A stretch of 64,000 nucleotides of DNA from Tetmemena sp. SeJ-2015 (Eukaryota > Ciliophora > Spirotrichea > Sporadotrichida > Oxytrichidae), in contig JAJKFJ010021059.1 of NCBI GenBank assembly GCA_027382625.1, positions 1-64,000 on the forward strand, in the 5' to 3' direction. The translations under genes and the position numbers were made by a program. Numbering within the stretch: the stretch's first letter is position 1; every line of letters starts with the position of its first letter. The notes below the pieces were generated by a model that did not search any database, had not been told where the DNA came from, and saw only the letters and a program-made list of their open reading frames with translations. This document shows, piece by piece, positions 45,047-53,633 of this stretch.

Positions 45047-46398
45047 ATGGCTACAGACGCACACGTGAAGGCTATCACAACTAACTACAACATCACTCCC
45101 AGAGTCGACTACAGAACAGTACTCGATGTCGAAGGTCCCCTCGTCGTCCTCGACAACGTCAAGTTCCCCAGGTAAATACCAACCCACCTCAAATCCCATC
45201 CAATATCGCCAGACCTTTGTTTCCTCTTTCTGACTTGTGCAATTTCCTGACCTTACTCAAAATAGGAACTTATATGTATTGTGGGTGGATTACTTATTAG
45301 ATATGCAGAGATTGTGAACGTGAAACTAGGTGATGGATCAATGAGAAAGGGTCAAGTGCTCGAAATCGCTGGAAAGAGAGCAGTCGTGCAGGTAAGCAGC
45401 GTCTCCTTGCCTCAGACTCACTCCCTTGAGAGTGTAGTCGTGGCCTTCTTATTTTGCTTTTCTGATTGGCAGCTCCTTATGCATATGGTTGTAGATTTTC
45501 GAAGGCACATCAGGTATTGACAACTTGCACACTCATTGCGAGTTCACTGGCGACGTGCTAAGAATGCCCATCTCTATTGAGATGCTTGGTAGATCATTCA
45601 ACGGTTCAGGTACCCCCATCGATCACGGCCCCCCAGTCCTCGCTGAGAAGTTCCTCGATATCCAGGTAAGCTCTTCTCTTTCAATAGAAATCCCTCTTTA
45701 GCTCAATGCTTAATCACATGCAATCAAATTATAATAGTAAATAAGATATGATTGAATGTGTAAATGGCTTTTGTTTGCTTCTTTCTTTGTGTCTAATATC
45801 TTTATTAAATTATTAAATATCGCATGAATTATATCGCATTTCTCTTTTATAATGATAAGATTACATTTGAATATATTTAGTTTATAATTTATGCTTATAA
45901 AGTTAAATATAATATTTTTTAATAAAAGAAAGTAGAATATGCTAATTAGGTAGCAAGAATTGATTTTTTAATTATATTTCTTTTTAAATTGTAGTTGTAT
46001 ATGTGAATAATATAGGGTCAACCCATTAACCCTTACCAAAGAGTCTACCCCCAGGAGATGATCCATCAAAATAGAAAAACAATTATATTCAAAGATAAAC
46101 TTTATAAATTTAAAAAAACAATTTTTTAGTCCCATACAAAAGTAGATCTGTGATTTAATCGAAGTTAATTTGGTTTAGAAAATTTTTTTAGCAATTTTTA
46201 AAAATATAACTTGTATTTTAGCTTTGAAGCAATAAACTTAAATTAACAATAAGTTGTTCTAAAGTAAGAAAATGAAAGATATAATGATCCAGACTGGTAT
46301 CTCCGCTATCGATGTGATGAACTCTATCGCCAGAGGTCAGAAGATCCCCCTCTTCTCTGCTGCTGGTCTCCCTCACAATGAAATTGGTGCTCAGATTT
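45047..46398 (+). CDS. ATP6V1B: V-type ATPase subunit B, 5' germline segment of a scrambled gene
   Basis: Non-catalytic B subunit of the cytosolic V1 sector of the proton-pumping vacuolar ATPase. ATG 45047 gives [19 protein letters not shown] and the motifs [109 protein letters not shown] and [17 protein letters not shown] introns are at 45172-45300, 45392-45494 and 45666-46015 (the last 350 nt, unusually long). An IES with pointer ATGATCCA occupies 46066-46291. The segment stops in mid-protein at pointer TGCTCAGATTT (46388-46398). The next residues (CRQA...) are found only on the minus strand at 53622, 7.2 kb away. Confidence 0.96.
46066..46291 (+). other. IES, 226 bp, pointer ATGATCCA (V-ATPase B)
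   Basis: ATGATCCA at 46058-46065 and 46284-46291. Removal joins VYPQEM to IQTGISAID with no gap relative to the family. The insert is strongly AT-rich and lacks GT-AG ends. Confidence 0.95.
46388..46398 (+). repeat. Scrambled-junction pointer TGCTCAGATTT (end of V-ATPase B 5' segment)
   Basis: Eleven bases identical, inverted, to 53623-53633. The bases beyond it (AATAC...) are non-coding. Confidence 0.93.
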
Positions 46399-46751
46399 AA
46401 TACAATTACATCAAATAAATAGCCATAAATGGAAATATGATGGGTCTCGCACTTTTATAAATAAATCAATAATAATTATACTCACAATTAAATCACATAT
46501 TTAAACTATAAATTATAAATAAAAGTTAGATCATATGTTTTAATTCTACTTTCAAAAATATTTTTGATTGGCACATTCAAAATTCAAGTTATAAAAATAA
46601 ATAATCCTTTCATAAAAATATCATAGTTAGTTATCATTATCTAGAAAACTACGTTTAAAAAGGTGTAAGATCTTATAAGTCAACTTTATAAGGTTTTATT
46701 TCTGCAATTTAAAGCATCTGAAGTTTATTTTTCAGTTGAGCTATATCTGTA
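46399..46751. other. AT-rich spacer after the V-ATPase B 5' segment
   Basis: About 350 bp, very AT-rich, no coding signal recognised. It separates the truncated V-ATPase reading from the nested RING-CH/FHA gene. Confidence 0.6.
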
Positions 46752-52191: not shown

Positions 52192-52591
52192 GCTTTACTC
52201 TAGCATCCTATTCCATTCCTTGTAATTCTAAAGCATTCTCAAAATACTGCAAAGTATTAAACCTTCTCTTTGATACTCATTCAGTGAATATAGAGATTCT
52301 TTGAAACCAGAACTATAAATATACCTTTATAAATCAAACTTGTTTTTATCTAGCAATCAATTAAAAGCATAAGAAATATTGATGGCAATTAAAAGATAGA
52401 TAAAATAGTTTGGACAAAGATAAATAACTAGAAGAGTGGATAAATTGAGTGAGAAGCTTTAAAAATAATTTAGATAAACTGCGCAGATGTGCTAATAGTC
52501 TTTGGCAATGCTATAAGAGCGAATCTCTGTATTATGTAACAAACCTGGCAGCTTTGATAGGCCACTTTTGAGTGACTGGGTGGCTGGTAGC
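52192..52591. other. AT-rich intergenic interval
   Basis: About 400 bp between the long Asn/Gln-rich gene and the 3' end of V-ATPase B, which converge here. No coding or structured element recognised. Confidence 0.5.
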
Positions 52592-53633
52592 TCATCTGTC
52601 CTTGGCCTCCTCCTTCTTCTCTCTCTCGTATCTCTCCATCTCGTCCTTTCTCTTGTAGAACTTCTCCAAGTTCTTGGGGTTGATCTTCTTGAGCATCTTG
52701 TCGGGGAAAAGTCTGAGAAGTCCCCAAGCCATATCCAGGGACTTGAAGATATCTAAACAATAAATTACACTTAATTCAATTATCTCTGGCATCATAAGGT
52801 CCTTGTCTGAGGAACTGACCTTCGTATCTCTCGAGGAACTCAAGATAGAGTCTATCGTCTTCAGTCAGGGCTTCTTCTCCGACCACAGCCTTCATGGCCT
52901 GGGTGTCCTTACCAATAGCGTAGAAAGCGTAGAGCTGGTTTGATACCTCGGGGTGGTCAACTCTGGTGAACTCCTCACCAATAGCGGACTTCATTAAACG
53001 AGATAGAGAGGGGAGCACGTTGATGGGGGGATAACCCTCACTTGTATTAATTAATAACCTATACTGGTCTGATGAGTTTAGATCTGTCTGTTATGGAGAT
53101 TTCTGTCGATGAAGATTTGTCCCTCAGTGATGTAACCAGTAAGATCGGGGATGGGATGAGTGATATCATCGTTGGGCATGGTGAGAATGGGGAGTTGGGT
53201 GATGGAACCGTTCTTACCGCACACTCTACCGGCTCTCTCATAGATGGTGGAGAGATCAGTATACATATAACCTGGGTAACCTCTTCTACCTGGCACTTCT
53301 TCTCTGGCGGCTGAGATTTCTCTCAGGGCGTTGGCGTAAGAAGACATATCAGTCAGAATGGTGAGCACGTGGAGCTCCTCCTCATAAGCGAGGTACTCAG
53401 CAGTGGTGAGTGCGAGTCTGGGGGTAATGATTCTTTCGATGGTGGGGTCGTTAGCCAAGTTCATGAAGAGCACGACACGGTCCATAGATCCGTATACCTC
53501 GAAGTCAGTCTTGAAGAAACGGGCAGTCTCCATATTGACTCCCATAGCTGCGAAAACGATGGCGAAGTTGTCATTGGAGTGATCGTGAACGTCCTTCTGT
53601 TTCACAAGGGAAGCCTGTCTACAAATCTGAGCA
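52592..53633 (-). CDS. ATP6V1B: V-type ATPase subunit B, inverted 3' germline segment
   Basis: Begins on the minus strand at pointer TGCTCAGATTT (53633-53623) and continues the protein exactly where the plus-strand segment stops: [150 protein letters not shown] and [20 protein letters not shown], ending at TGA 52592-52594. IESs with pointers TA (53034-53080) and AGATA (52755-52785) interrupt it. With the 5' segment it gives a complete subunit B, so this is a functional scrambled gene and not a broken copy. Confidence 0.96.
52755..52785 (-). other. IES, 31 bp, pointer AGATA (V-ATPase B)
   Basis: TATCT (plus strand) at 52750-52754 and 52781-52785. Removal joins GPYDARD to IFKSLDMAW. Confidence 0.9.
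53034..53080 (-). other. IES, 47 bp, pointer TA (V-ATPase B)
   Basis: TA at 53032-53033 and 53079-53080. Removal joins RNLHNRQI to [11 protein letters not shown], an invariant B-subunit segment. Confidence 0.85.
53623..53633 (-). repeat. Scrambled-junction pointer TGCTCAGATTT (start of V-ATPase B 3' segment)
   Basis: Minus-strand copy of the 11-bp pointer at 46388-46398. The joined reading is [15 protein letters not shown]. Confidence 0.93.

What the first reader, a model, noticed from the sequence alone, without database searches (positions are those of the whole stretch)
45047..53633. V-ATPase subunit B gene is split, inverted and wrapped around other genes
The 5' part (45047-46398, plus strand) ends in mid-protein at HNEIGAQI. 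The 3' part (53633-52592, minus strand) starts at CRQASLV. Both ends carry the same 11-bp sequence TGCTCAGATTT in inverted orientation, and joining through one copy gives an uninterrupted, highly conserved subunit B. Between the halves lie about 7.2 kb with a RING-CH/FHA gene and another long gene. This is a scrambled germline locus with an inversion and nested genes, not a pseudogene.
Basis: partly seen in the sequence, partly recalled or inferred. Interest (0 to 1): 0.9.

Follow-up and report, generated by a model that had tools for sequence, protein, structure and literature searches.

The report
Split, inverted V-ATPase gene in ciliate
In the germline DNA of a single-celled ciliate the gene for a proton-pump subunit lies in two halves facing opposite ways around another gene, and would have to be cut, flipped and rejoined to work; it is a clean new example of a phenomenon already known in this group.

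Summary
The window is ciliate germline DNA (TAA/TAG = Gln). V-ATPase subunit B starts at 45047(+), breaks at 46398, resumes at 53633 on the minus strand and ends with TGA at 52592. TGCTCAGATTT occurs once on each strand of the window, exactly at the two broken ends. Joining through one copy, and removing three introns and three small pointer-flanked IESs, gives a 498-residue protein, 96% identical over its full length to Stylonychia lemnae V-ATPase B. A second haplotype contig shows the same isolated 3' half; there 4 of 963 coding bases differ between haplotypes, all synonymous, against 17 of 79 IES bases. So it is not a pseudogene and, at the 3' break, not an obvious misassembly. A RING-CH/FHA gene lies in the 7.2-kb gap. 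The 5' break rests on one contig, and no macronuclear copy was found. Mechanism, inferred: pointer-guided inversion and joining during macronuclear development. Closest known: scrambled and nested ('Russian doll') loci of Oxytricha and Tetmemena. New member of a known kind. The most novel element is a 37-bp IES-like insertion present in only one haplotype of the split gene.

The parts
45047..46398 (+). 5' block of V-ATPase subunit B: exons 45047-45171, 45301-45391, 45495-45665, 46016-46057 and 46284-46398, with GT-AG introns 45172-45300, 45392-45494, 45666-46015
   Evidence: Translation with table 6 and alignment to homologues
46058..46283 (+). Conventional IES (226 bp with one pointer copy), pointer ATGATCCA at 46058-46065 and 46284-46291; 19% GC without the pointer
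   Evidence: needed for the frame; most of it and 30 coding bases recur at 94% in C3685
46388..46398 (+). Pointer TGCTCAGATTT, 5' copy
   Evidence: Only + strand occurrence in the window
53623..53633 (-). Pointer TGCTCAGATTT, 3' copy, inverted
   Evidence: Only - strand occurrence in the window; same sequence and flank in haplotype contig C4430
52592..53633 (-). 3' block of V-ATPase subunit B, inverted relative to the 5' block, ending with TGA at 52592
   Evidence: second haplotype C4430:10418-11497, 95%
53034..53080 (-). IES of 47 bp with one pointer copy, pointer TA
   Evidence: 8 of 48 bases differ between haplotypes in the range 53033-53080
52755..52785 (-). IES of 31 bp with one pointer copy, pointer AGATA
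   Evidence: 9 of 31 bases differ between haplotypes
53354..53355 (-). Site at which haplotype contig C4430 has 37 extra bases flanked by AGAAT (ATTCT on the gene strand); absent from the window
47212..52191 (+). Embedded gene with RING-CH and FHA domains; start and end approximate (read by eye)
   Evidence: RINGv 2.6e-11 and FHA 9.1e-11 in a hand-stitched protein; homologues
48537..48559 (+). Small IES inside the embedded gene, pointer TGAAT (48537-48541 and 48560-48564)
   Evidence: Restores the RING-CH reading ALECELC

Best explanation
This is a scrambled germline (micronuclear) locus of a hypotrich ciliate. V-ATPase subunit B is carried as two blocks of macronuclear-destined sequence in opposite orientation, 7.2 kb apart, with a RING-CH/FHA gene between them. 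When a new macronucleus develops, the small IESs are removed at their short pointers, and the 3' block is inverted and joined to the 5' block by recombination through the 11-bp pointer TGCTCAGATTT, keeping one copy. The embedded gene is probably released to its own macronuclear chromosome. Shown here: the anatomy, the pointers, the intact frame after joining, and constraint on the coding parts of the 3' block. Inferred from the known biology of Oxytricha and relatives: the rearrangement itself, its guidance by RNA, and the separate fate of the embedded gene.
For: In-frame join through a repeat found nowhere else in the window. Joined protein 96% identical over its full length to S. lemnae V-ATPase B and to P0002. 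Three ordinary IESs with pointers ATGATCCA, TA and AGATA in the same gene. The haplotype contig C4430 has the same 3' block, pointer and flank. 4 of 963 coding bases differ there, all synonymous, against 17 of 79 IES bases. DNA searches with each half found no other copy in the assembly, apart from C4430 and a 206-bp piece in C3685.
Against: No macronuclear sequence of this species was available; the joined junction is absent from the assembly. The 5' break is on one contig only. The whole-protein search of the assembly did not complete. The 206-bp piece in C3685 is not explained.
Confidence: 0.93

Rival explanations
1. Simple inversion, one chromosome: the whole stretch 46388-53633 is one inverted block, and V-ATPase B and the RING-CH/FHA gene stay together on one macronuclear chromosome, so nothing is nested in the strict sense.
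For: Inverting 46388-53633 as one piece would also restore V-ATPase B. The S. lemnae V-ATPase B contig is 9,157 bp, longer than one such gene needs.
Against: The four S. lemnae RING-CH/FHA homologues named among the 120 listed hits (of 537) are on contigs of 4836, 4733, 5120 and 3608 bp, not 9157. Orthology was not settled, and hits beyond the 120 were not seen.
Confidence: 0.15
2. Assembly artefact: the two halves were put in opposite orientation by a chimeric contig.
For: The assembly has poor stretches (C3685), and only one contig spans the 5' break.
Against: The 3' half starts at the pointer in two haplotype contigs, with the same unrelated flank. A chimera would have to fall exactly on an 11-bp inverted repeat at the protein break. 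Both contigs come from one assembly, so they are not fully independent.
Confidence: 0.04
3. Decayed gene: a broken V-ATPase B pseudogene left by a germline inversion, with the working copy elsewhere.
For: The gene cannot be read as it lies, and the assembly may be incomplete.
Against: 498 open codons after joining. The four coding differences between haplotypes in the 3' half are all synonymous. DNA searches with both halves found no other copy except C4430 and the C3685 piece.
Confidence: 0.02

Closest known systems
Scrambled genes with inverted segments in Oxytricha trifallax and Tetmemena sp. (PMC9797194: abstract, two Results sections and passages read)
   Same: Segments in changed orientation, joined at short repeated pointers; short IESs with pointers in the same gene
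   Different: One inversion only, far simpler than the most scrambled loci; another hypotrich assembly; gene not named as scrambled in what I read
Nested 'Russian doll' loci of Oxytricha trifallax (PMC5940158: abstract, introduction and one Results section read)
   Same: A different gene lies between two segments of a scrambled gene
   Different: One layer only; that the embedded gene forms its own macronuclear chromosome was not shown here

Membership tests
[quoted passage not shown]
   5' block on +, 3' block on -
Scrambled ciliate gene with inverted segment | Pointer repeat at both segment ends, one copy kept after joining | tested here: met
   TGCTCAGATTT at 46388 (+) and 53623 (-); in-frame through one copy
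Scrambled ciliate gene with inverted segment | Contiguous gene in the macronucleus of the same species | not testable with these tools
   No macronuclear junction in the assembly. The protein is contiguous in S. lemnae.
Russian doll (nested) locus | Sequence of another gene lies within the gap of the outer gene | tested here: met
   RINGv and FHA domains encoded between the blocks; gene ends approximate
Russian doll (nested) locus | Inner and outer genes form separate macronuclear chromosomes | tested here: inconclusive
   S. lemnae contig lengths 9157 against 4836, 4733, 5120 and 3608 bp; orthology not settled
Pseudogene | Stops or frameshifts left after joining; non-synonymous changes | tested here: not met
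   498 open codons; 4 of 4 coding differences in the 3' half synonymous. The 5' half could not be compared: no second haplotype.

The most novel reading that the evidence does not exclude
The two germline haplotypes of this cell line are cut differently at this scrambled housekeeping gene: one carries an extra 37-bp, AGAAT-flanked, frame-breaking IES in the inverted 3' block that the other lacks. If real, an IES gain or loss is caught as an allelic polymorphism. It would allow a direct test of whether one set of macronuclear templates guides two differently segmented alleles.
Probability: 0.5. Interest if true: 0.45.

Novelty: new member of a known kind. Interest (0 to 1): 0.32.

Why it matters
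It is a simple, fully readable case of one germline inversion splitting an essential, slowly evolving gene, so that segment and pointer borders can be placed to the base from the protein alone. With two haplotypes it shows constraint on coding segments against fast drift of IESs, and a candidate allelic IES. It does not change what is known about scrambled genomes.

Tried and rejected
Second haplotype for the 5' break: DNA searches of 45047-46398, 46380-49300 and 40000-45040 in the assembly gave only the window itself, a 206-bp piece in C3685, and the end of C4430, which reaches only to 49129. C3685 as other allele or as a segment duplication: not decidable, because the sequence around the match is homopolymer-rich and of poor quality.

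Test by S. lemnae contig length whether the DNAJC9-like neighbour shares the V-ATPase B chromosome: no hit named S. lemnae among the 120 listed of 1189, so no answer. Trans-splicing of two half transcripts: rejected, since the 5' break is followed by AATAC, not GT, and a DNA repeat is present at both breaks. Species identity: not settled; paper searches gave none that I could match to a 146-Mb, 5213-contig assembly. The table of PMC9797194 gives 496, 237 and 172 Mb for its three germline assemblies. V-ATPase B in print as a scrambled gene: one search, 35 papers with at least 3 of 4 terms, 12 listed, none of the 12 holding 'V-ATPase'. Allelic IES polymorphism in print: one search, 13 listings seen, no paper opened.

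Full report
What is there. The window is bases 1-64000 of a 99,389-bp contig (G000:C2138) in an assembly of 146,216,379 bases in 5213 contigs. With TAA and TAG read as Gln, long conserved proteins run through it. V-ATPase subunit B begins at 45047 on the + strand; exons end at 45171, 45391 and 45665 before three GT-AG introns. A conventional IES bounded by ATGATCCA at 46058 and 46284 follows, and the coding sequence stops in mid-protein at 46398. The gene resumes on the minus strand at 53633, crosses two more small IESs (pointers TA and AGATA), and ends with TGA at 52592.

The junction. The words at the two breaks are identical, TGCTCAGATTT, one on each strand and nowhere else in the window. 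Random in-register position pairs shared 11 or more bases in 20 of 2,000,000 trials; here the run also falls on the protein break and keeps the frame. Joining through one copy gives 499 codons including the stop. The product is 96% identical over its full length to S. lemnae 'vacuolar atp synthase subunit b' and to P0002, an entry numbered 403331973 that I take to be Oxytricha (recalled, not from a call). It aligns to a solved V-ATPase subunit B, 6wlz_D, over residues 8-481 without a break.

Pseudogene and misassembly. Contig C4430 (14,957 bp) is the other haplotype of window 49129-64000 plus 98 bp beyond, 97.5% identical. It carries the same 3' half, pointer and flank. Over the 3' half 4 of 963 coding bases differ, all synonymous, and 17 of 79 IES bases differ. 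One search had counted one IES base as coding; one search corrects it. In both haplotypes the DNA before the 3' pointer is unrelated to V-ATPase B; a minus-strand frame ending at 53713, which I take to be the end of the neighbouring metallophosphoesterase gene (domain at 54161-54865; the link is inference), stops 80 bp away. So the split of the 3' half does not depend on the 5' side being assembled correctly. The 5' break is on one contig only. The 5' half could not be tested for constraint. The joined 32-base junction is not in the assembly, as expected of germline contigs.

The embedded gene. The 7,224 bp between the pointer copies hold a RING-CH and FHA gene on the + strand, with at least one small IES (48537-48559, pointer TGAAT). 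Four homologues named S. lemnae among the 120 listed of 537 are on contigs of 4836, 4733, 5120 and 3608 bp; S. lemnae V-ATPase B is on one of 9157 bp. That favours separate chromosomes, but orthology was not settled, and a single inverted two-gene block is not excluded.

Mechanism. In Oxytricha, segments fuse by recombination at pointers of 2-20 bp, one copy being kept, guided by long and small RNAs (PMC5940158, introduction). Nothing here shows those steps directly; the anatomy is what that machinery requires.

Haplotype IES. C4430 has 37 more bases after window 53354, with AGAAT at both ends of the insertion. It is the longest of 36 indels in 14,807 aligned bases, the next being 16 and 14 bp. 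It would break the frame unless removed, so it looks like an IES present in one allele only. Against this: a germline consensus corrected with macronuclear reads could have lost it from the window, and no substitution separates the haplotypes in the coding DNA around it (none in 53081-53633), so local haplotype identity cannot be checked.

Compared with what is known. In O. trifallax 2,021 of 15,811 processed contigs are scrambled and 1,301 have segments of other chromosomes nested in them (PMC5940158). In Tetmemena 13.6% of loci need translocation or inversion (PMC9797194 abstract). The present locus is a one-inversion member of that class in another hypotrich assembly, hypotrich by its nearest protein match.

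Noticed in passing
window 53354-53355; C4430 (L025, L026): A 37-bp insertion flanked by AGAAT in one haplotype only, inside the coding part of the 3' half: a candidate allelic IES.
   Followed up: partly
G000:C3685:20504-20703 (L002, L029): A 206-bp piece of the V-ATPase B IES plus 30 coding bases, 94% identical, set in homopolymer-rich, poor-quality sequence; allele, duplicated segment or chimera cannot be told.
   Followed up: partly
G000 contigs C298, C586, C672, C739, C770, C1030, C1301, C4311, C4966 (first 20 bases); C334, C508, C689 (last 20 bases): Contigs that begin or end with exactly CCCCAAAACCCCAAAACCCC, like hypotrich macronuclear telomeres (recalled), so some macronuclear chromosomes may be in the assembly.
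   Followed up: no
window 55370-56180: Haplotypes differ at 86 of 782 aligned bases, against 272 of 14807 overall: probably eliminated or intergenic DNA.
   Followed up: no
window 45666-46015: Third intron of V-ATPase B is 350 bp at 21% GC, against 129 and 103 bp at 39% and 48% for the others; it may hold an IES.
   Followed up: no
window 38520-45351 (-): A SNF2-family ATPase frame of 1196 aa and a DNAJC9-like gene lie upstream, the latter head to head with V-ATPase B.
   Followed up: no
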